Below, piece after piece: positions 4,089 through 44,008 of a stretch of DNA of 64,000 nt. The notes beneath the pieces are model-generated. The model worked only from the letters and a program-made list of their open reading frames with translations, searched no databases and was not told the DNA's origin. Position 1 is the first letter of the stretch, and every line of letters starts with the position of its first letter. The position numbers and the translations under genes are program-made. The DNA is from an uncultured Lewinella sp. (lineage in GTDB: Bacteria > Bacteroidota > Bacteroidia > Chitinophagales > Saprospiraceae): positions 1 to 64,000 of the forward strand of contig CAJXPD010000014.1 of NCBI GenBank assembly GCA_913057785.1, read 5' to 3'.

Positions 4089-5303
4089 CTACAGCCCTAA
4101 CACCCACGCCACAAAGATTCCAATATAGTTCCCCAACCCCAATCCTAGGATCGATAGAGAAATAGCCACGGGTAACAATTCTCGATTCTTGATAGAACTT
4201 GCCATTTGCACCACAAAGGGAGGCCCCATGGTAGCAGCGGTACTACTTAGGATAAAGCTATCGGAGTCAATTCGAAATAGAACGGCCAGCAGGTAATGCA
4301 ATCCTACGATACCGATCAATACCAAGGCATTGAAGACCAAATAACTGCTTCCCATTGAAATGAGTTCTGTGAAATCTGCTAGGAAGCCGGCTGCCAATCC
4401 AAAAATCAATAAGAGATACTGCGCATAGTTGAAAACACCCTTTAACAGTCTAATGCTGGGGATAAAGGATAAGCCAATGCCGAGGGTGGTTAGCGTCAAC
4501 ATCAGAATGGTTTGATTGGGTTCTCCCTTGCTATCTGGAAAGAACGAAGCCAATGCCGCAGATAGAGCAACTGCCCCTAAGCCTAGTAGGGTAGCGATAA
4601 GCAAGGGTCGGATGCTAGTCCATTGCCATTGTTTAGGAGGAAAAGGTAAGTCGGGCATTTGACTACTTTCCCCAATAAGTTGCGCGCTAGTTTGCTTAGA
4701 TTGAAAATTGGGTAACAACCGGCCTAAAATCGGTTTGCCCAAGGAGAGTAAAAACAAAAAGTAAAGCCCGCTGCAAAGGGCATCCGTCGCATTGAGTAAA
4801 AGAAAAAGCTGGTCATCTGCCGCCAAGGCCTTGCTGATCGCGACCATATTTGGCGTTCCGCCAATGTATACACCGGCCATCATACCGGCCGTCGTTTCAA
4901 CTTGCTCTAAGCTGCCTTCATACAAATAACCCATCGTGATCGTCACCACCAAAACAGCCAAAACGCCTAGTAGGAAGGCTTTCGTAATCTTACCCGTATA
5001 TTGCAACCATTCCGTCACATCGCATAACATTAGCAGTAAGGGAATAGCCAGCAATACGGATGTGAATGCCGTTATTTGCGAGGTAGTGGCTATAGTACCC
5101 GCTAGGGCTTCCGCTGATTCGCCCGGTAACCAAGACCAAAGCCAAAGTGATTTGGTGTTTCCCAATAACATACCGATACCATAGCAAAGAACAATATCAC
5201 TCAAAAACCGATTTATTTTCAGCTGCCGACTCAACTTCATTAACCATATGGGCAGCAAAAGAAAAAGCAGTATTTGAATGATAATGGCGATCGTAACACC
5301 CAT
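4089..5303 (-). CDS. DUF819 family integral membrane protein
   Basis: Polytopic inner-membrane protein of 404 residues with about ten hydrophobic helices. It resembles the DUF819 family (YjcL-like), which is predicted to be transporter-like but has no established substrate. Two internally related halves are suggested by glycine-rich re-entrant-type segments, for example GVYIGGTPNMVAISKAL near 150 and SSTAATMGPPFVVQMA near 365. It lies 170 bp downstream of the PLP enzyme on the same strand and may be co-transcribed with it, but no shared substrate is evident. Confidence 0.75.
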   Translation of the reverse strand: MGVTIAIIIQILLFLLLPIWLMKLSRQLKINRFLSDIVLCYGIGMLLGNTKSLWLWSWLPGESAEALAGTIATTSQITAFTSVLLAIPLLLMLCDVTEWLQYTGKITKAFLLGVLAVLVVTITMGYLYEGSLEQVETTAGMMAGVYIGGTPNMVAISKALAADDQLFLLLNATDALCSGLYFLFLLSLGKPILGRLLPNFQSKQTSAQLIGESSQMPDLPFPPKQWQWTSIRPLLIATLLGLGAVALSAALASFFPDSKGEPNQTILMLTLTTLGIGLSFIPSIRLLKGVFNYAQYLLLIFGLAAGFLADFTELISMGSSYLVFNALVLIGIVGLHYLLAVLFRIDSDSFILSSTAATMGPPFVVQMASSIKNRELLPVAISLSILGLGLGNYIGIFVAWVLGL

Positions 5304-34123: not shown

Positions 34124-35377
34124 ATGTCAGCCAAGCAATCGAAAAACGAAGCCTGCATCATTATTGGAGCTAGCCATGCTGGTGTAAACTGCGCTTTCGC
34201 GCTCCGCCGTGAAGGTTGGGAAGGGCAGATCCTGCTGATTGATGCGGATCCACATTTACCATACCACCGCCCGCCTTTATCCAAAACCTTTTTGACAGAG
34301 GAAGGAGATATTGAGAAAATTGCCTTGCGACCAGCGGCCAGCTATGAGAAAGAAGAAATCGAGCGAATCGCAGGAAGGGTATCGGCAATTGATCGAATGA
34401 AGAAGCTGGTAATACTTAAGGACGGCCGATCTTTTTCCTACCAACAGCTAGTCATAGCCACCGGGGCTCGCCCCTTAATCCCCCCAATCCACGGATTGCA
34501 GGACAATCAGCGAGTTTTTACCTTGCGCCATGCCGCAGACATTGTCCAGATCCGGGAAGCTCTACAAAGTAGCCCAGACAAACGGGTGGTGATTATTGGA
34601 GGCGGCTATATTGGCCTTGAGTTAGCAGCATCTTTATCAAAACTGAGAGCGAAAGTCGCCCTGCTAGAGCGGGAAGAACGCCTCCTAGCCAGGGTGACGG
34701 CACCAGAGGTATCTGACTTTTTCTTGCACCTGCATCAAGCTAAGGGAGTGGAGATTTGTAACGGAAAGAATGTCATTTCAATACGGTCAGCAGTTGATTG
34801 TTCTGAGGTAGAATGCGCGGATGGTACTCTTTTCGAAGCTGATCTGGTTATCCTGGGCGTGGGGATTAGGGTGAATACCGAATTGGCCGCCGATGCCGGG
34901 CTGGAGATCGAAAATGGTATCAAAGTAGATGATACTACCTGTACCACGGATCCACATATTTATGCTATTGGCGACTGTAGTTTTCACTATAATTCTTACT
35001 ACGACACCTTTGTCCGGCTAGAGTCCGTTCAGAATGCCGTGGATCAAGCCAAAGTTGCCGCCGCAAATATCTGTGGCAAGCACACGGTATATGATGCTCT
35101 ACCTTGGTTCTGGTCCGATCAATATGATATCAAGCTGCAGACCGTTGGCCTTTTCCAGGGATATGATGAAGCCATCATCAGAGAAGAAGTAGGAAAGGAC
35201 AATTGCTTTTCCATCTGGTATTTCCGAGGGGCCCAATTACTAGCAGTGGATGCGGTGAATAATGCCAAGGCCTATGTAGTTGGAATGAAGCTGCTGAAGG
35301 AGAAACCCCTAGTAGATAAGACCAAAATTTCCGATCCTCACTCACCCCTCAAACCTGCTCTTCTCCTAGAAACATAG
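34124..35377 (+). CDS. FAD-dependent ferredoxin reductase
   Basis: 417 residues, putidaredoxin-reductase type. FAD site IIIGASHAGVNCAFALRREG near 9-28, NAD(P) site VVIIGGGYIGLELAAS near 153-168, second FAD contact YAIGDCSF near 283, and a C-terminal reductase domain (YDALPWFWSDQYDIKLQTVG). Completes the three-gene P450 chain. The stop at 35377 is followed directly by the left direct repeat. Confidence 0.93.
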   Translation: MSAKQSKNEACIIIGASHAGVNCAFALRREGWEGQILLIDADPHLPYHRPPLSKTFLTEEGDIEKIALRPAASYEKEEIERIAGRVSAIDRMKKLVILKDGRSFSYQQLVIATGARPLIPPIHGLQDNQRVFTLRHAADIVQIREALQSSPDKRVVIIGGGYIGLELAASLSKLRAKVALLEREERLLARVTAPEVSDFFLHLHQAKGVEICNGKNVISIRSAVDCSEVECADGTLFEADLVILGVGIRVNTELAADAGLEIENGIKVDDTTCTTDPHIYAIGDCSFHYNSYYDTFVRLESVQNAVDQAKVAAANICGKHTVYDALPWFWSDQYDIKLQTVGLFQGYDEAIIREEVGKDNCFSIWYFRGAQLLAVDAVNNAKAYVVGMKLLKEKPLVDKTKISDPHSPLKPALLLET

Positions 35378-35600
35378 CCCTCCCCAGCCCGTGTGGGTAT
35401 TTTCTACCAACACATAACCTTAGCCGTAAAAGATCCTCCTCCTACAATCTATATTGATATTTTCCACCAACACCCTGCGACCCTCGAGCCCTCAATGCCT
35501 CCCCCTATAAATGCAAACCCTATGTTAAAACCAATCAAAAGAGAGGTATCTCCTCCTGGTATATCTTAATTTGATAGAGCCTCGAAAATGCAAACTCCTT
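35378..35600 (+). repeat. Direct repeat, copy A (flanks ATPase gene)
   Basis: Begins right after the reductase stop. Core 35502-35595 matches 37524-37617 at 83 of 94 bases by hand alignment. It starts with a GTGTGGGT...ACCAACAC hairpin (35391-35413) and has a second decayed copy of the same motif (about 35453-35473), so A is about 40 bases longer than B. Confidence 0.75.
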
Positions 35601-35750
35601 TAACCAAGGAATTCTCGACGCTAATAGTTTTAAGATTTAAATCCTATTAACGACAGCTTCCTTGTTCTACTTTTTAGGACTCAGGATTTTGTGGGGCATG
35701 ATTAGACCACACGCCCAAGCGACTTGCGCCAAATATTGTATTAGTCAATT
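35601..35750. other. Intergenic, between repeat A and ATPase stop
   Basis: About 150 bases without a supported gene. A 20-codon frame starts at 35588 inside the repeat end (ATGCAAACT), probably a remnant. Confidence 0.4.
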
Positions 35751-37304
35751 TTACAGGTTGAAATCATCCATGATCTGGAAATCAGGCCTATCCGGAAATG
35801 GGTATACACAGAAGGAAACCGGTGCAGTGCGATTGATGTTTAGTTTGGAATAGAACAGTGGGTGTATAACACAAGCATCCTTCTCGTTGATAAATAGCCG
35901 GTCCCTGACGGCAAATTCAAAGTCAGCTCGAATGATCTTTGATTGATGATCCGTATTTCCTCTCTTGCGCCCAACTATACCCAATTCGATCACTAGCCTT
36001 ATAAATTCTGATTGGGAATATTCACCATGACTCCAGTGTCCGGAGGTTCTCTTTGCAGATTTATGTAATTCGTTACCCATGAATTCCATAGGCAACCCTT
36101 CCAGGGAGGAAATGATGTCTCCGGTGTTCGCTTGTATCCCAATGTAGGAGTTAATTAGTTCGTCTGCCAGATCAATTTCCGATGACAGGACCCCTTGTAC
36201 AATCGTAGCAGGAGAAAACTTAGGAAACTCTCCTTTAGCCATGGCAAGACTAGCAATCTTGTTGCATACGAAGATCAATTGCCTCGGTCGGAGATGGGTG
36301 TGCCTTAAAATGTAAGGAAAAGTGTTCTCCTCTATTCCTCGAGTATTGATCAGGGTCTTCCCGAAGTAAGGTAGCCAGAGTTTCTTGTATACTTCTTTAT
36401 GTGAGTCCCAATTTATCTGATCTTCTTTGAGTTGAATTAAATCCCTTAAGTTCAAGAACTTGAAGAAGCGCCAGCAAATGAGTCGCATGAGATCCTTTGG
36501 CCTCCAATACATGTAGAGTGGATTGCGAATGTATTTTAGGGTGTTGGTGATAAACTGTTCCTTGATATAGGGGAAGATCTCATCAGCAATACAGACTTTC
36601 AGGTGTATGCCGCGTACCGCATATCGGATATTGAACTCTGAAGCACATTGGATTAGGGCAGCAGTGATCCACATTTCGTAGTAACTGTTAATGGCGTACT
36701 GCTCCCTGGAATCTATTACGATGAATAGGGGAGCCTTGGATACAATTTCCAAGACACGCTCCTTGGCTTTTTCTATCCTTCTGCTGTTCTGTTTATCTTG
36801 AATCATCTGGATAATGTCATCTCCTGTTGACATATCGACTTTATTCAGGACCCCCCGAAGTACCAACTTAATGAAGTTGGAGGTTGTCAGATCCTTATCA
36901 TCGGTTTCGACGGCCCGACGAATAGTCCCACTTTTGTCCTGTAGTTTTTTGAAAATCATCTGCCAGATAATAAAGTCCCAGATTTCGACCAACTTCTGAA
37001 TGGCTAACTCTTGGGAATATTCAAGGCGTTTAGCGATATCAAATAATTCGGTATTGTAATTTTCCGCTCTACCTACATTCACATAATCGGAATTAGGGTA
37101 GGTGTCTTGATAGAGGAAGTGCTGCATTAGTGAGGACTTTCCGCTACCTCGCCGGCCAACGATCAAGTAGTTGTCAAGAGATAAGGCACCAGCAACAAAG
37201 GGGGTATGATCAAAAAAATATTCTTCCCATTTGTTACCCAGCAGTGCGATTTCATTTTCAAAGCTGATTTCACCGAAGGGGTGAATTAGAGTGGAAGTCA
37301 GCAT
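35751..37304 (-). CDS. P-loop ATPase, Sll1717-like, unknown role
   Basis: 517-residue soluble ATPase. Walker A is GRRGSGKSS near residues 50-58; Walker B-like hydrophobic strand with acidic residue is PLFIVID near 195. Its layout (HPFGEISFENEIALLG, then FFDHTPFVAG) resembles the poorly characterised Sll1717 P-loop family. C-terminal part is a helical domain with HTHLRPRQLIFVCNKI. It is alone on the minus strand and bracketed by direct repeats, so it may be an inserted, self-contained unit, perhaps defence-related; that is speculation. Confidence 0.65.
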   Translation of the reverse strand: MLTSTLIHPFGEISFENEIALLGNKWEEYFFDHTPFVAGALSLDNYLIVGRRGSGKSSLMQHFLYQDTYPNSDYVNVGRAENYNTELFDIAKRLEYSQELAIQKLVEIWDFIIWQMIFKKLQDKSGTIRRAVETDDKDLTTSNFIKLVLRGVLNKVDMSTGDDIIQMIQDKQNSRRIEKAKERVLEIVSKAPLFIVIDSREQYAINSYYEMWITAALIQCASEFNIRYAVRGIHLKVCIADEIFPYIKEQFITNTLKYIRNPLYMYWRPKDLMRLICWRFFKFLNLRDLIQLKEDQINWDSHKEVYKKLWLPYFGKTLINTRGIEENTFPYILRHTHLRPRQLIFVCNKIASLAMAKGEFPKFSPATIVQGVLSSEIDLADELINSYIGIQANTGDIISSLEGLPMEFMGNELHKSAKRTSGHWSHGEYSQSEFIRLVIELGIVGRKRGNTDHQSKIIRADFEFAVRDRLFINEKDACVIHPLFYSKLNINRTAPVSFCVYPFPDRPDFQIMDDFNL

Positions 37305-37462
37305 GACCTACAGTTTTAAAGCGATTAGAAAAATTCTGTTGCTTTTATGGTGTTCGAATGGATTTAAGGGGTGTTTTGCAGTAGAGTATCTTATTTATTA
37401 ATTACACTTTTAGATCATTTGTTACAGCCTAAAGGTGAGCTTTTACGGATGTACTAGGTCGA

Positions 37463-37617
37463 TAGCCTCCCCCGCCGGTGTTGGTATTTCCCACCAACAC
37501 TGACCAGCGCCCCCAAAGCATAACCCCTGTAAATGCAAAACCTATGTTAAAACGAATCTGAAGAGAGGTATCTCTGCCTGGTATATCCTAATTTGATAGA
37601 GCTTTGAAAATGAAAAC
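37463..37617 (+). repeat. Direct repeat, copy B (flanks ATPase gene)
   Basis: Contains the perfect hairpin GTGTTGGT, ATTTCCC, ACCAACAC (37478-37500) and the 94-base core (37524-37617). Same orientation as copy A, 2.0 kb away. It ends 15 bases before the start of the next gene, so in this copy it doubles as a 5' region. Confidence 0.75.
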
Positions 37618-37632
37618 GATAAAACTATGCAG

Positions 37633-38049
37633 ATGAATTTACCAAAACCTTTCCTACTCACACTTCCTATTTTCGTGTTGCTATTGGCCATCTATGGATT
37701 TAGCATGCAGAAACCCCAGGCTAAGGAGTTAATGACCTTGGTGGTGTCCTATGAAAATGGAATCCAGCTCTTGGTGCAGAGCCAGGCAGATGGAACATGC
37801 AAAAAGCAGGCCTTTATCGCTAGTAGTGCAAGACAGCGGTTTAAGCAACAGTACAAAACACCGGGTGTGGCCTATGAGGAATTACCACTGAAAGGACGGT
37901 ATGACAATACGGCGATTTTGGCACGGATCCAAGCTTTGACCAAGGAGGGGTGGCAGTTGGTAAGCCATGATTATTCGATGGCAATCGGTGATCCGATCGA
38001 CGAGCCTTGGAACAAAGAGCGAGTGTCCTTCTATTTGTTTGAACGTTGA
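37633..38049 (+). CDS. Small membrane/secreted protein, DUF4177-like
   Basis: 138 residues from ATG 37633 (ATG 37627 also possible). One N-terminal hydrophobic segment (PFLLTLPIFVLLLAIYGF) acts as anchor or signal. The C-terminus has the short strand/helix pattern LTKEGWQLVSHDYS that recalls DUF4177. Unknown role; repeat B directly precedes it. Confidence 0.55.
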   Translation: MNLPKPFLLTLPIFVLLLAIYGFSMQKPQAKELMTLVVSYENGIQLLVQSQADGTCKKQAFIASSARQRFKQQYKTPGVAYEELPLKGRYDNTAILARIQALTKEGWQLVSHDYSMAIGDPIDEPWNKERVSFYLFER

Positions 38050-38079: not shown

Positions 38080-38127
38080 TACCCTGGGACCGTTGGAGCC
38101 AGCAGGAAGGGCTCCTCGATTCTCTTC

Positions 38128-38859
38128 TCAAAGCAGGGCATTCATCAGTTCTTCCTTGTAAGCCTTAGCGACTGGGATTTTCTGACCCGCAATGATTACT
38201 TGGCCAGGTTCTACCACCTCTATATGCTGTAAAGAAATGATGTAGGACTTGTGCACCTTGAGGAATCCGGAGCGTGGTAGGAGCTCTTGTAATTGACTCA
38301 TATTCAGACGGGAAATGATCTTCTGCCTGCTGGTGTGGAAAAAGACGTAGTTGCCATTTTTTTCTAGGAAAAGAATGTCAGCAGGAGAAACCTTATAGAG
38401 CTTAGAACCACTTTTAACATAAATGAAATGGTGTCCCGTAGAAGGTTGAGTTGGTGAGCTATTGAGAGCGGCAGGGATAGCTATTCCTTGTTTTAACTGC
38501 CAGGATTCTCGTGCCTTGAGCGCCGCTTTAAAAAAGCGATCAAAGGAGATGGGCTTCAATAGGTAGTCTACCGCATTGAGGTTATAGCTTTCTACGGCAT
38601 ATTTAGCATAGGCGGTTGTGAAAATGATCATAGGATTTGGACCTATATACTCCCGAAATTTCAAGCCCGATAAACTCGGCATATTGATGTCCAAGAAGAT
38701 TAAGTCCACCTGATTGTCTTGAAGCCATGAAATAGCTGCCAAAGCGTCTCGGAAAGATCGCTGCAAGGTCAAGAATGGAATCTTCTTGACATGTAGCTCG
38801 ATGATCTCTAAGGCTTTAGGTTCATCTTCTACTGCGATGGCTATAAGTTGCTCGCTCAT
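38128..38859 (-). CDS. LytTR response regulator
   Basis: 243 residues. REC domain with phosphoacceptor Asp in VDLIFLDINMPSLSG and a conserved Lys in YLLKPISF; C-terminal LytTR DNA-binding domain with FIYVKSGSKLYKV, ILFLEKNGNY and FLKVHKSYIISL. Partner of the LytS-type kinase 10 bp upstream, together a two-component system. Stop lies near the convergent small-protein terminator. Confidence 0.95.
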   Translation of the reverse strand: MSEQLIAIAVEDEPKALEIIELHVKKIPFLTLQRSFRDALAAISWLQDNQVDLIFLDINMPSLSGLKFREYIGPNPMIIFTTAYAKYAVESYNLNAVDYLLKPISFDRFFKAALKARESWQLKQGIAIPAALNSSPTQPSTGHHFIYVKSGSKLYKVSPADILFLEKNGNYVFFHTSRQKIISRLNMSQLQELLPRSGFLKVHKSYIISLQHIEVVEPGQVIIAGQKIPVAKAYKEELMNALL

Positions 38860-38869
38860 GCTTAGATTT

Positions 38870-39943
38870 TCATGGTTCCTTCAAAGCAAACAGAGTCAGC
38901 TTTACTTCAAAAGTATCATTCCCATTGATTATCTGCAAATCATGACTGTCGGAATAGATTAAGGCTAAGCGACGCCTGACGTTTTCCAAACCAATACCAG
39001 AAGACTCCTGTAGATCATTCAATTGTTGCTCAAATTTGGAGTTGATTAGATGAAATACAATCTGGTGTGCATCAGCTTTTAGTTTAATCTTTATGAAGGA
39101 GCTTTCCTGGAGGTAAATCCCGTGTTTGAAGGCATTCTCTACAAATGGAATCAAGATTAATGGGGCAATCTCCTGTCTGGAATAATCTCCTTCAATATTT
39201 AGACTGATCAGTACATCATCATTTTCGTCCAGCCGTAGTTGTTGTAGTTCAATGACACTTTGCAGGTAGGCAATTTCCCGGCTCAAGGGAACGCGATCCG
39301 CATTGGCTTCGTGCAGCATGTAGCGCATCAGATTGGATAATTCTGAGATCCCTTCTGCCAACGACTGTTCGCCGCTTTTCTCTGCTAAGGCAAATAAATT
39401 GTTTAGGGTATTAAAGAGGAAGTGTGGATTAACCTGTGCTTTCAAAAACTGCAATTCTGCACTGAGTTTTTCCTGTAGTAATGCCTGTTTTTGCTTTTCG
39501 TTGTGTAGATAATTCTTGCCTAGGACATAGGCAGAGGATAGACCTAGGTAGATAAGGCTAAAGAGGATATTTAAGGGCGTAATGATCAAGGCTCTGCGGG
39601 GGCGCTCAGCTAGATCAAGTTCGAAATTTAGGCTATTTAGTCCCCGTTCCATTAGGTGTGCAGCTAGGAGGAGCAGAAGTAACTCTAGCAAATAATGAAG
39701 ATATCGTCTTTTTTGCAGGAGTTTGGGAAAGAGTAGCAAACTATTGATATAGAACACGATCGCTTTGGTGATAAGAAAAAACAACACTGGCCAATACAAA
39801 TAGTAGAATTCTATTCGAACTTCCTTCACACCGTCAACAATTTCCACGAGGCTTCTATTCACCGCGAAAGAAACCAGGAAGATCCAATAGCTTACTAGCC
39901 AGAACCCGATATGTAAAGGGATTTCCCAAAACGGTCGCTTCAT
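38870..39943 (-). CDS. LytS/YehU-type sensor histidine kinase
   Basis: Start at ATG 39943 (MKRPFWEIP), 357 residues; an upstream start at 40033 adds 30 residues. Four transmembrane helices in the first 150 residues, then a His_kinase domain with phosphoacceptor His in QVNPHFLFNTLNN and an ATPase end GIGLENVRRRL. Cognate of the response regulator at 38128. Divergent from the serine hydrolases with about 215 bp between, so those may be targets. Confidence 0.93.
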   Translation of the reverse strand: MKRPFWEIPLHIGFWLVSYWIFLVSFAVNRSLVEIVDGVKEVRIEFYYLYWPVLFFLITKAIVFYINSLLLFPKLLQKRRYLHYLLELLLLLLAAHLMERGLNSLNFELDLAERPRRALIITPLNILFSLIYLGLSSAYVLGKNYLHNEKQKQALLQEKLSAELQFLKAQVNPHFLFNTLNNLFALAEKSGEQSLAEGISELSNLMRYMLHEANADRVPLSREIAYLQSVIELQQLRLDENDDVLISLNIEGDYSRQEIAPLILIPFVENAFKHGIYLQESSFIKIKLKADAHQIVFHLINSKFEQQLNDLQESSGIGLENVRRRLALIYSDSHDLQIINGNDTFEVKLTLFALKEP

Positions 39944-40158
39944 AAGGTGAATATCAGGATTTTTTGAAACGCGTGGGGGCACTTTTGCAAAATTGGTAGG
40001 AAGTGTTCTCTTTTTGGTATGAAAGGGCAGCAACTTGGGAAATCACATTTTTGGAGCCTTTGCTGTCAAATTGATCGTGCTAGATAACATTGTCCATTTC
40101 GCTTCTGTTCTCCGACTTATCTTGACCCTAATTCTGAAATCCAAAACTGCGCGATCCT

Positions 40159-41649
40159 ATGAGAAGTTTTCTGTCCTCGACCCTAGTTCTGTTAGCTGTA
40201 TCTATTAGCCTTTCTGGCCAACAATTGGGCCCCCAGACCTTAGATGATCTAGAAGGAAGTCCGGCTGGAAGTAACGTAATCCGATTTCTGAAGGCCATCA
40301 ATGCGACGGAAACCTTCGCTGCGGAAGACCTTCCGCAAATCTTTGCACAATCCCTTATCGAAAAACGGGGAACGGCAAGATTGCTAGATGTAATGGCTGA
40401 CATCAAAGCACATGAGGGCCTGATTGAATTATACGAAGCTGAGCGTACGAGCACCTTCCGATATGAACTCAAAGCCAAAGGACTAAAACTAGATGAATGG
40501 ATTGATATTAGCCTAGAATTAGAGGATCAACCGCCCTATAAAATTAAGGCACTCCATGGTTTGGACATCTCATCGATCCCAGCCAAAACGACTACACCTA
40601 TGTTAGGTCCGGGTAAAGGCGTAGAGATTCCCACATTTGAAGGAAAGGTAGATGCGAAGAAGTTCCAGGAATTGGATCAATGGATTCAAGCTAAAGCCGA
40701 TCAGCATCAGTTTTCAGGAGTAGTACTGATCGCCAAAGATTTTAAACCACTTCTTCACAAAGCTTATGGTATGGCCAGCAAGCGTTATCAAGTGCCCAAT
40801 ACGACTGAGACAAGATTTCGATTAGCCTCAATCAGCAAGATTTTTACAGCAACAGCGATTCTGCGGCTTGCGGAGCAAGGGAAGTTGTCTTTGGATGACA
40901 AGTTGGGTAAGTACTTGGCGGTAGAGGAGTTTGCAGATCCAAGAGCTAAGGAGGTTAAAATTCGTCATTTACTGAATCACCAATCGGGTTGGGCTAGCTA
41001 CTGGAACGTTCCTGATTACACAGAAAACCGCTTACAATTGCGATCTGTAGCTGATTATATGTCTTTCATCAAAAAGCTTCCGTTGACTTTTGATCCGGGT
41101 ACTAAAACAGCCTATAGCAATTCAGGATATGTGGTACTTGGAGCCGTGGTCGAAGCGGCTTCCGGAATGGATTACTACGAATTTATTGATCAGGAAATTT
41201 ACAAGCCTGCTGGTATGTCTCATTCCGGAAGCTTTGAATTAGACCATATCGTGGAAAACCTGGCCACTTGCTACACGAATTATGACTATCGATCTGAAAG
41301 GGTCGGTAAGGATTACCCCTTCGAAAACATTTTCTTCAGTGCTCCTAAAGGCGTGCCAGCTGGTAGCAGCATCTCAACTACTGGAGATCTATTGAAATAC
41401 CTGAAGGCGGTCGTCTCGAACAAAGTTTTGAATGCTACATCAGTCAATTTTTTACGGGCTCGGAATGGGTCCGCAGGCAAGCCTGGAGATTTCATTTTCC
41501 ATAATGGTGGAGCTCCTGGCAGCAATACCTGGATGCAGTGCAATGTGGAAAATGGGTATTCCATCATTGTCCTAGGAAACTATGACCCGCCTACTTCGAC
41601 CAAAGTGGTTCGGCACATCGGTAAGGTGCTACATCTACAGGTTTTATAG
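40159..41649 (+). CDS. Serine beta-lactamase-fold hydrolase with N-terminal SPAG domain
   Basis: 496 residues, signal peptide ending near SLSGQQ. Residues about 25-130 are an accessory domain beginning LDDLEGSPAGSNVIRFL and ending PPYKIKALHGLDIS. Residues about 165-490 are a class C beta-lactamase/D-aminopeptidase fold: SISK (Ser-x-x-Lys nucleophile motif), YSNSGYVVLG (Tyr-x-Asn), HNGGAPGSN (third motif region). Probably a peptidase or esterase acting outside the cell, not an antibiotic resistance enzyme. Its accessory domain is shared with the next gene. Confidence 0.9.
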   Translation: MRSFLSSTLVLLAVSISLSGQQLGPQTLDDLEGSPAGSNVIRFLKAINATETFAAEDLPQIFAQSLIEKRGTARLLDVMADIKAHEGLIELYEAERTSTFRYELKAKGLKLDEWIDISLELEDQPPYKIKALHGLDISSIPAKTTTPMLGPGKGVEIPTFEGKVDAKKFQELDQWIQAKADQHQFSGVVLIAKDFKPLLHKAYGMASKRYQVPNTTETRFRLASISKIFTATAILRLAEQGKLSLDDKLGKYLAVEEFADPRAKEVKIRHLLNHQSGWASYWNVPDYTENRLQLRSVADYMSFIKKLPLTFDPGTKTAYSNSGYVVLGAVVEAASGMDYYEFIDQEIYKPAGMSHSGSFELDHIVENLATCYTNYDYRSERVGKDYPFENIFFSAPKGVPAGSSISTTGDLLKYLKAVVSNKVLNATSVNFLRARNGSAGKPGDFIFHNGGAPGSNTWMQCNVENGYSIIVLGNYDPPTSTKVVRHIGKVLHLQVL

Positions 41650-41738
41650 AAATTTTGACTTGCTAATCCTATATCTGTCTTTTCAAAGGGCAACAGCACT
41701 CCATTGTATTGGACCAGTTTCTGAATAAAACTTTAATT

Positions 41739-43997
41739 ATGAAAAGCATCTTGCTAAGCTTTCTTCTACTATTCCTTACGAGTGGTTTTACTATCGCTCA
41801 ACAACTCGGCCTCCAAACACTTGAACAACTCCAAGAAAGTCCCGCTGGTAATCGAATCTTGACTTTTGTTAGTACGGTGAATGATGCAGGGACACCTACG
41901 GAGGATTGGGTGCGTACCAACTTCAGTCCAAACCTATTGGAGAAGCTCGGCGTCAAAGGACTGCTTAGTTTTATTGGTCAAATTAGAGAGATGGATGGGG
42001 GATTGCAGATCTATGATGCTACCAGGAAAGAGGTATTTGCCTATAAGATGAAGGCAAAAGGTACCCGCTCTGGAAACTGGGTGGATATGGACTTTCTTTT
42101 TGAAGAAGAGCCACCATATCGAATTCTAGGATTTGGCTTAGATATTTCAGAGGAACCCGCACAAGCACAACAAGCACTCTTTCCTACAAAGGGAGTATCG
42201 TTTGGAACGGGAAGCGATAAGTCTACCGATTTCACCCCGATTCCATTGCCCAGCACTCCGGCCGGCAGACGGTTAGCAGAACTAATCGCTTCTTTTGAAA
42301 ATGGAGATTATGAAAGCTACCTTAAGGAAAACTTTGCATCCTCTTTCTTCGAACAGGTTCCTTTCACTGAGGCCTTGGCAATGACTGAAGAAATAGCCTT
42401 GGAAAGTAGAGGATATCGAGTTCATAGTCTGCTGCAAGATTCCGCTCATTTGATTGAGGTATTGGCCTATGCACGGAATATGGGTGGTTGGCAGAAGCTG
42501 TTCTTGCAGACGGATGTTGAAACTCCACATCAGATAGCGATGGTCGGTATAGATATGGCAAAACCGCCTGGCTTTGATCCTAAGGAGGCACAGCGGAATT
42601 TGGTGGAAAAGACGCTTTCTAGTCCGCATCCCAAAGGTCGACTATGGGTAAAGGGAGAACTGGGGGAGAAGTTGGATCAATTCTTAACCGCCGAGTTCAA
42701 ACAGGGATTTTCGGGAGCTGCCCTAGTGGTGAAAGGTGGGGAAAAGGTATTGTACAAGGGGTACGGGCTGGCCAACCGCGCGAACTTATATCTCAATACT
42801 ACCGAAACACTTTTCGATGCCGGTTCTATCATGAAAGATTTTACGGATGCGGCCATCTTGAAATTGGAGGCATTAGGTAAACTGTCCTTGGAGGATCCAA
42901 TATCGAAATTCTTGCCGGGCGTGCCGGCAGATAAGCAAAGGATAAGCATCCATCATTTGCTATGGCATGCTTCGGGTTTAGTGGGAAATCATAGCCCACA
43001 TGATGATACAGAGATGTCCTTTGAAAGGGCACTGGCAGAGATTCTTCAGGCTCCGCTGCGGTTTGAACCGGGTAGTGATCGGCAATATTCTAATTCGGGC
43101 TTTACGGTTCTCGCAGCCATCATTGAGAAAGCATCTGGACAAGCCTATCTAGACTATATTGAGCAGGAGATTGTTGCTCCAGCAGACCTGGAAGGTTGGG
43201 CTTATTTCGGTCAGAAAGAACGCATGCAGGCTGATCAGGTGGCCTTGGCCTACGATGGCCTTGATCGAGGAAGTTACAATGATCCCTACCAAAGAGCACT
43301 ACCCGGATGGCAAATTCTAGGAGCTGGAGGTATTTGCTTGAGTTTAGAAACCTTGTACCAGTTCTCGATGGCCATTAAGGCTGGAAAAGTGATGCCTCCC
43401 AGTGCTACCAAGAAATTCCTGGAGGTTTATAACCCTGCAAGAACGGGCAAATTTGAAACCCCAACTCGCCTCTTTGGAGGAGGTAGTGATATTGGCTTTA
43501 CCATGCTCTGCTTGGACTTTCCTGAAGAAGATGCTTATGTCATTATGGCTTCCAATACCGGGAACTTCAAGAACCCTACCATGGCTGACCCCTTAGCCAA
43601 TCTATTCTTAGGCAGAAAGCTAAGTACTACAAAAGAACCTTTCCAGCCCAGAACCGCCCAGCAGTGGGGCTTGCCGGAAACACCAGCAGGCCAACGTGCG
43701 GTCGAGTTGCTTAATATTGTGTCTGCAGGGAATTCAGCTACTTTTGGCTCTTATGCGAAGAAAGCTTACGCAAGGAAGTTTTACGATGCCTATTCCGAGC
43801 AGATGCACATTCAATTTTTGAAAGAAGTAGCTTCTATCTTGGAAGGGCCACCGAAGTTGAAGAAAATTCAAAGGACAGGAGAAGATGAGTTGAGTTTCTA
43901 CATGGATGCTTTGGAAACTGGCGAAAGCCTTAAGGTGTCTATTAAGACAACATCACAAAAGCCACATCAAATAGAAAGTCTTTCAATAGGGCAGTGA
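41739..43997 (+). CDS. Serine beta-lactamase-fold hydrolase with three SPAG domains
   Basis: Start at ATG 41739 (the TTG at 41709 is unlikely), 752 residues, signal peptide ending near TIAQQ. Domain order: SPAG domain 1 about 26-140 (LQESPAGNRIL...ILGFGLDIS), SPAG 2 about 167-290 (STPAGRRLAELI...AMVGIDMAKP), beta-lactamase fold about 305-630 (SIMK, YSNSGFTVL, GGGSDIGF), SPAG 3 about 640-750 (ETPAGQRAVELL...IESLSIGQ). So it is a paralogue of 40159 with extra copies. Functional site intact. Convergent with the TPR-LuxR gene 11 bp beyond its stop. Confidence 0.88.
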   Translation: MKSILLSFLLLFLTSGFTIAQQLGLQTLEQLQESPAGNRILTFVSTVNDAGTPTEDWVRTNFSPNLLEKLGVKGLLSFIGQIREMDGGLQIYDATRKEVFAYKMKAKGTRSGNWVDMDFLFEEEPPYRILGFGLDISEEPAQAQQALFPTKGVSFGTGSDKSTDFTPIPLPSTPAGRRLAELIASFENGDYESYLKENFASSFFEQVPFTEALAMTEEIALESRGYRVHSLLQDSAHLIEVLAYARNMGGWQKLFLQTDVETPHQIAMVGIDMAKPPGFDPKEAQRNLVEKTLSSPHPKGRLWVKGELGEKLDQFLTAEFKQGFSGAALVVKGGEKVLYKGYGLANRANLYLNTTETLFDAGSIMKDFTDAAILKLEALGKLSLEDPISKFLPGVPADKQRISIHHLLWHASGLVGNHSPHDDTEMSFERALAEILQAPLRFEPGSDRQYSNSGFTVLAAIIEKASGQAYLDYIEQEIVAPADLEGWAYFGQKERMQADQVALAYDGLDRGSYNDPYQRALPGWQILGAGGICLSLETLYQFSMAIKAGKVMPPSATKKFLEVYNPARTGKFETPTRLFGGGSDIGFTMLCLDFPEEDAYVIMASNTGNFKNPTMADPLANLFLGRKLSTTKEPFQPRTAQQWGLPETPAGQRAVELLNIVSAGNSATFGSYAKKAYARKFYDAYSEQMHIQFLKEVASILEGPPKLKKIQRTGEDELSFYMDALETGESLKVSIKTTSQKPHQIESLSIGQ

Positions 43998-44008
43998 TGT
44001 TCTCGGTT

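What the first reader, a model, noticed from the sequence alone, without database searches (positions are those of the whole stretch)
35378..37617. ATPase gene bracketed by about 150-bp direct repeats
The lone Sll1717-like P-loop ATPase is on the minus strand between two same-orientation repeats whose 94-base cores match at 83 of 94 positions. Copy B is immediately upstream of a small gene, copy A follows the P450 operon. This looks like a compact inserted cargo or a duplicated 5' region that took in the gene. An isolated ATPase in such a setting is a candidate stand-alone defence or conflict gene.
Basis: partly seen in the sequence, partly recalled or inferred. Interest (0 to 1): 0.75.

Follow-up and report, generated by a model that had tools for sequence, protein, structure and literature searches.

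The report
Acquired ATPase between duplicated gene leaders
In this bacterium a single ATP-burning protein gene sits in a spot where a close relative has none, and the stretch of DNA in front of the next gene now lies on both sides of it; this looks like ordinary gene gain with a local duplication, and nothing shows that the gene is a defence gene.

Summary
A 94-nt core (83/94 identical, same strand, 2,022 bp apart) brackets an intact 517-aa Sll1717-family P-loop ATPase (NF047389, E 7.9e-50). The pair is far beyond chance, and no third copy was found in the window or its genome. The core is the upstream (leader) region of the small gene 37627-38049: two congeners, G001 and G002, each have one copy, before that gene's ortholog. 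G002 is an empty site: reductase gene, 139 bp with one leader copy, small gene, no ATPase. The ATPase is not found in G001 either, but its assembly breaks in this gap. So the ATPase is most simply a lineage-specific gain, with the leader duplicated in the same lineage. No recombinase, tRNA or long terminal inverted repeat was found. ATPase homologs at 37-49% identity are scattered over four phyla as solo genes without a recurrent defence partner in the few loci examined. The predicted fold resembles Orc/Cdc6-, TnsC- and STAND-type ATPases. Three distant family members carry SEFIR/TIR- or deoxyribosyltransferase-like N-termini (weak matches), so a conflict role stays possible but is not shown here. 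'Duplicated 5' region that took in the gene' is supported; 'mobile cargo' and 'defence gene' are not.

The parts
35454..35595 (+). Copy A of the leader repeat (94-nt core 35502-35595); points towards the 3' end of the ATPase gene; no small-gene remnant was detected after it
37481..37617 (+). Copy B of the leader repeat (core 37524-37617); upstream region of gene 37627-38049
   Evidence: one counterpart each in G001 and G002, in front of the same gene
35751..37304 (-). 517-aa P-loop ATPase, Sll1717 family; Walker A GRRGSGKSS, aspartate 198, RPRQL motif; predicted Orc/Cdc6-, TnsC-, STAND-like fold
37627..38049 (+). Small gene, 140 aa, no Pfam family; found in 3 of 40 genomes searched (own, G001, G002)
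35391..35413 (+). Dispersed palindrome (hairpin), copy A side; a second, decayed one at 35454-35473
37476..37502 (+). Dispersed palindrome (hairpin), copy B side, 10-bp stem, folding z -3.5
34124..35377 (+). Ferredoxin reductase, last gene of the P450 cluster; left flank conserved in G001, G002, G003
35596..37480 (.). DNA between the repeats; no convincing match in G001-G003

Best explanation
A lineage-specific gain of a horizontally spread solo Sll1717-family ATPase in the gap between a P450/ferredoxin-reductase gene cluster and a small genus-restricted gene. The bracketing repeats are two copies of that small gene's own leader (presumed promoter) region, duplicated in the same lineage. Copy B still lies before the small gene; copy A is a duplicate facing the ATPase's 3' end. 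Most likely route (inferred): the incoming DNA joined at the leader by short homology (single crossover, or one-ended homology-assisted illegitimate recombination), or the leader was tandemly duplicated in a hairpin-rich, duplication-prone gap and the gene landed between the copies. Shown: the duplication, its restriction to this locus, the empty site in G002, no ATPase match in the sampled congeners, intact motifs. Inferred: gain rather than loss, order of events, route, source, and that the ATPase works as an AAA+/STAND-type switch.
For: Empty site: in G002 the reductase gene ends at 5100 and the small gene starts at 5240 of L029, with one leader copy and no ATPase between. The 21-nt heart of the core, up to 3 mismatches, occurs 2 times in G000 (A and B), once in G001 and once in G002, in the relatives before the small gene; the only other match in these four genomes is one 3-mismatch site in G003. 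ATPase: no match in the 3 congeners or the 21 other same-family genomes, a weak one (E 9.8e-6, 25%) in 1 of 15 same-order genomes. Of 104 aligned positions, A and B share 21 that differ from G001, so the duplication most simply postdates that split; A and B differ at 21, where G001 agrees with B at 12, A at 6, neither at 3. G001 shows its own expansion of the leader's hairpin half, at least 3 units over two contig ends, the native one included. Subfamily at 37-49% identity in Bacteroidota, Chloroflexota, Calditrichota and Gemmatimonadota, the window row unresolved among them.
Against: Only one clean empty site; G001's assembly breaks inside the array, so its gap is not read through, and G003's contig ends 116 bp after the reductase (G003 is 80% complete). 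Loss in several congeners instead of gain is possible. The 12 to 6 polarity is small. Shared A/B differences could also come from gene conversion. Nothing ties leader duplication and ATPase insertion to one event. Copy A shows no continuation into the small gene (75-117 of 300 shuffles score as well). That the leader is a promoter is inferred; the sigma-70-type scan found nothing there, but does not cover Bacteroidota promoters.
Confidence: 0.75

Rival explanations
1. The ATPase with one repeat is a small site-specific mobile element and the repeats are its attachment sites.
For: Direct repeats flank a compact insert with an empty site in a relative.
Against: No recombinase gene recognised inside or nearby; no tRNA in the window; no other copy of ATPase or core in the own genome; core absent elsewhere in four genomes but for one 3-mismatch match in G003; the nine subfamily loci lie in different contexts, except L096 and L098. 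Those loci were not scanned for flanking repeats.
Confidence: 0.05
2. The gene is a stand-alone conflict/defence ATPase, a STAND-like sensor, kept because it protects against phage.
For: Patchy family: 14 of 395 phylum genomes above cut-off, the own one included. Three of the 15 other loci above cut-off have long effector-like N-termini: L088 (TIR_2 1.7e-5, under Pfam's cut-off; bSEFIR 2.8e-8), L089 (bSEFIR 2.2e-14, no TIR family in Pfam), L076 (nucleoside-deoxyribosyltransferase-like, under cut-off). Fold rows include RdrA, BrxC and TnsC. Strong PADLOC matches among 56 subfamily neighbours trace to a D12 DNA methyltransferase (L099), a protein kinase (L101), an IetA-like ATPase (L098) and an MzaA-like protein (L103). 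Among 102 family neighbours one matches ThsB, one RtcR, one DolB, one PDC-M37B, two mad3.
Against: The window protein has no recognised effector domain and only weak PADLOC hits (0.001). The four traced subfamily matches are one each, at four different loci, two of them generic enzymes (methyltransferase, kinase). Other neighbours include PriA, a CDP-alcohol transferase, polyprenyl synthetase, EamA, a tRNA methyltransferase and a mechanosensitive channel. Two genera keep the gene beside PriA at 72% identity (L096, L098), though a third member of that family, L097, 77% identical to L096, lies elsewhere.
Confidence: 0.25
3. Repeats and ATPase are independent: a hairpin-rich gap that tends to duplicate its leader, as in G001, happened to receive the gene.
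For: G001 carries an array of the leader's hairpin half and no ATPase in its assembly. A second lineage-specific block, 38100-44000, lies on the other side of the small gene without flanking repeats of 24 nt or more.
Against: G001's extra units stop at AAATGCA and lack the downstream part of the 94-nt core, so they are not the G000 duplication.
Confidence: 0.35

Closest known systems
P-loop ATPase, Sll1717 family (NCBIfam NF047389)
   Same: Whole-length match, 170.3 bits against a cut-off of 75; Walker A, aspartate and RPR motifs kept
   Different: 15-20% identity to 13 other family members above cut-off; belongs to a distinct subfamily, 37-49% identical, with a C-terminal YPFPDxPD motif
Orc1/Cdc6-, TnsC- and STAND-type AAA+ ATPases
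   Same: Predicted fold: VIA Z 11.5 (1fnn), 11.4 (7ufi), 11.4 (2qen); Foldseek top rows Orc/Cdc6 (E 1.1e-3). Pfam ORC-CDC6-like matches several family members, one (L083) at its cut-off (27.1 vs 27)
   Different: 7-13% identity and rmsd 5-9 A in those rows; no match to solved structures by sequence at E 0.001 or better; no Pfam family for the window protein; substrate unknown
bSEFIR (PADLOC model)
   Same: Two distant family members, L088 and L089, match it over N-terminus plus P-loop
   Different: The window protein has no such N-terminus and no bSEFIR match was reported for it up to E 1

Membership tests
NF047389 P-loop ATPase, Sll1717 family | Score above NCBI's curated cut-off over the model's length | tested here: met
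   170.3 bits vs 75, model 1-452 of 454
NF047389 P-loop ATPase, Sll1717 family | Intact Walker A and conserved D/W/R/PR positions | tested here: met
   G50, G53, G55, K56, D198, W267, R279, P340, R341 invariant in 14 rows
Mobile element bounded by direct repeats (att-type) | Own or nearby recombinase | tested here: not met
   None recognised among nine genes at 31.8-41.6 kb (three without a family, one of them the ATPase); the only ORFs of 60 aa or more inside the insert are the ATPase and two short ones of 61-63 aa
Mobile element bounded by direct repeats (att-type) | Further copies of element or repeat core | tested here: not met
Known anti-phage defence protein | Match to a PADLOC model at a convincing score | tested here: not met
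   Best E 0.001, 16 bits
Known anti-phage defence protein | Protects a host against phage | not testable with these tools
   Needs an experiment
Orc/Cdc6-TnsC-STAND AAA+ fold | Confident structural match | tested here: inconclusive
   No Foldseek E at or below 0.001; VIA Z up to 11.5 but all 50 rows shown lie within 2 of it

The most novel reading that the evidence does not exclude
The subfamily is an undescribed solo AAA+/STAND-like conflict switch that spreads across phyla, and at this site the duplicated leader is functional: copy A fires antisense into the ATPase's 3' end while copy B drives the small gene, tying expression of the acquired gene to that of its host neighbour.
Probability: 0.06. 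Interest if true: 0.6.

Novelty: new member of a known kind. Interest (0 to 1): 0.3.

Why it matters
It also points to a cross-phylum ATPase subfamily of unknown function: searches of the held papers for 'Sll1717' and 'Sll1717 family' found no paper. Distant relatives carry SEFIR/TIR-like domains, which makes a function test worthwhile.

Tried and rejected
Remnant of the small gene after copy A: rejected; local scores 22-25 are reached by 117, 99 and 75 of 300 shuffles against the three orthologs.

RNA element in the leader: no Rfam match at E up to 5 near the repeats (the two matches listed are weak snoRNA ones at 39 kb), and folding z-scores of the two leader copies are -1.3 and -0.1 (G001 -1.1, G002 -1.8). 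Only the short palindrome before copy B folds well (z -3.5); the one before copy A gives -1.7.

Genome-wide repeat: the hairpin part is dispersed, the core is not. Foreign base composition: the ATPase stretch is 41-44% G+C, lower than the P450 genes (about 47-50%) but like the DNA to its right. Promoter/terminator scan: 1 promoter-like site against 5.7 by chance, 3 terminator-like against 2.3; Bacteroidota promoters are not covered by it.

Second block 38100-44000 as a product of the same process: no flanking repeats of 24 nt or more.

Literature: 'Sll1717' and 'bSEFIR' gave 0 papers; 'Sll1717 family' had 0 occurrences in each of the 10 papers listed of 193 that held 'P-loop ATPase' or it. Papers on homology-facilitated illegitimate recombination and SEFIR domains were seen only as search listings with abstract starts. 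No paper was opened.

Not traced: one of the 47 PADLOC families, and the proteins behind ThsB, RtcR, DolB and PDC-M37B; of that set traced only C3a214 (L081) and one of the mad3 matches (L082).

Full report
OBSERVATION. Two same-strand copies of a 94-nt core, 35502-35595 (A) and 37524-37617 (B), agree at 83 of 94 positions. No other offset in the window gives a direct ungapped 94-nt pair with 76 or more identities. The wider alignment scores 173 against at most 41 in 1,000 dinucleotide shuffles. Between them, on the minus strand, lies an intact 517-aa gene that matches NF047389, P-loop ATPase of the Sll1717 family, at E 7.9e-50, 170.3 bits against a cut-off of 75.

WHAT THE REPEAT IS. It is the upstream region of the small gene 37627-38049. 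That gene, without a Pfam family, was found in 3 of 40 genomes searched: its own, G001 and G002, all of one genus. In G001 and G002 one copy of the core lies in front of the ortholog. The 21-nt heart of the core, with up to 3 mismatches, occurs twice in G000 (A and B), once in G001, once in G002 and, at 3 mismatches, once in G003 at a place not looked into; the reversed control has 1 match in all four genomes together. About 30-40 bp upstream of the core is a different thing: a palindrome, GTTGGTNTTTTCNACCAAC, found dispersed in the genus. With up to 2 mismatches to GTTGGTATTTTCTACCAAC there are 18 in G000, 17 in G001, 10 in G002, 1 in G003, 0 in G004 and G006; controls 1, 0, 0, 0, 1, 0.

EMPTY SITE. 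In G002, contig C43, the reductase gene ends at 5100 and the small gene starts at 5240: 139 bp, one leader copy, no ATPase. In G001 one contig ends about 200 bp after the reductase and another begins 397 bp before the small gene; both ends hold units of the leader's upstream half plus a palindrome, so the assembly seems to have broken in an array, and the gap is not read through. The G003 contig ends 116 bp after the reductase. The ATPase protein is not found in G001, G002 or G003 nor in the 21 other same-family genomes; of 40 genomes only the own one and, weakly (E 9.8e-6, 25%), G026 match. With the DNA 35378-37640 as query, matches in G001-G003 fall on the leader and hairpin parts or, between 35596 and about 37460, reach no better than E 0.10.

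AGE AND ORDER. Of 104 aligned positions, A and B share 21 that differ from G001 and differ from each other at 21; at these G001 agrees with B at 12, with A at 6, with neither at 3. The duplication therefore looks younger than the split from G001, though not recent (gene conversion could mimic this); the excess of changes in A fits a relic but is small. G+C of the ATPase stretch, 41-44%, is below the P450 genes and like the DNA to its right. What follows copy A is not a detectable remnant of the small gene. The small gene has a second lineage-specific neighbour block at 38100-44000: a LytTR response regulator, a histidine kinase and two beta-lactamase-family genes. In G001-G003 this block has only short matches, at most 176 bp, and no flanking repeats of 24 nt or more were found around it; in G001 the equivalent of window 44009 onwards follows the small gene directly. 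The neighbourhood is variable in general.

THE ATPASE. Family level: 14 of 395 phylum genomes, the own one included, have a match above cut-off (16 loci). I fetched the surroundings of all 15 other loci. The closest relatives, 38-42% identical, came from 4 of 394 other genomes of the class. A scan of named genomes gave eight loci, 37-49% identical: five new ones from Chloroflexota (3), Calditrichota and Gemmatimonadota (the last incomplete), and three on contigs of the same lengths as. In a tree of 13 of the 23 rows of alignment A4 the ten subfamily rows form one supported group in which the window's place is unresolved: no sign of descent within Bacteroidota alone. No homolog was found in phage or plasmid records or viral contigs.

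NEIGHBOURS OF RELATIVES. Pfam was given 17 neighbours of the nine subfamily loci listed. They are a mix: PriA, CDP-alcohol phosphatidyltransferase, polyprenyl synthetase, EamA, a tRNA methyltransferase, a mechanosensitive channel, a D12 DNA methyltransferase, a contractile-injection tape-measure homolog, others of unknown role. L096 and L098 share synteny beside PriA with 72% identical ATPases; L097, 77% identical to L096 and of the same family, lies elsewhere. In PADLOC at 1e-15, 47 families matched among 56 subfamily neighbours, each of the 25 shown with 1 member. accounts for 46 of the 47 with four proteins at four loci: the D12 methyltransferase of L099 (11), a protein kinase of L101 (30, 25 of them shown), an IetA-like ATPase of L098 (4) and an MzaA-like protein of L103 (1). 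Of 102 family neighbours, mad3 matched 2 and twelve further families 1 each, ThsB, RtcR, DolB and PDC-M37B among them. There was no matched control set, so enrichment was not tested; what is missing is a recurrent partner.

FOLD AND POSSIBLE MECHANISM. AlphaFold2 gives a confident model (pLDDT 89, pTM 0.89; alignment A4 of 23 rows holds 13 of the 15 distant loci, L088 and L089 left out). Foldseek's first rows are Orc/Cdc6 proteins (E 1.1e-3), with RdrA, TnsC and BrxC further down among many AAA+ proteins; VIA gives Z 11.5 for Cdc6, 11.4 for TnsC, 11.4 for the Walker-type ATPase PABY2304. Pfam's ORC-CDC6-like family matches several family members weakly, one (L083) at its cut-off. An AAA+/STAND-type nucleotide switch with a C-terminal helical and winged-helix-like part is my inference. 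Of the 15 other loci, Pfam saw 14 ATPases (L080, 83% identical to L079, was not given). Effector-like N-termini turned up in L088 (TIR_2, under cut-off; bSEFIR in PADLOC), L089 (bSEFIR only) and L076 (deoxyribosyltransferase-like, under cut-off) (only these three ATPases were given to PADLOC besides the window's). The window protein has none.

VERDICT. A lineage-specific gain of a cross-phylum solo ATPase, bracketed by a locus-specific duplication of the next gene's leader. The route is inferred: joining by short homology at the leader, or insertion between already duplicated leaders. A mobile element with attachment repeats is unlikely. A defence role is open; the context examined neither shows nor excludes it.

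Noticed in passing
window 35391-35413, 37476-37502; L107-L126: Dispersed palindrome GTTGGTNTTTTCNACCAAC, with flanks that by eye also vary in a pair-keeping way; 18, 17, 10 and 1 copies in four genomes of the genus, none in the two other genera searched.
   Followed up: partly
window 38100-44000: Block with LytTR regulator, histidine kinase and two beta-lactamase-family genes, only short matches in three congeners; in G001 the small gene is followed directly by the equivalent of 44009 onwards.
   Followed up: partly
L096:6437-7966 and L098:5948-7678: A contractile-injection tape-measure homolog (PF19268 in L096; the L098 protein is 28% identical to it over 221 aa) lies two genes upstream of the ATPase relative, PriA downstream.
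   Followed up: no
L088:5760-8078, L089:7953-10289, L076:7088-9457: Sll1717-family ATPases with SEFIR/TIR-like or deoxyribosyltransferase-like N-termini, possible immune proteins.
   Followed up: partly
L030:1-312, L043:4735-4929: Array of the leader's upstream half plus a 41-nt tandem repeat in G001; both contigs end in it.
   Followed up: partly
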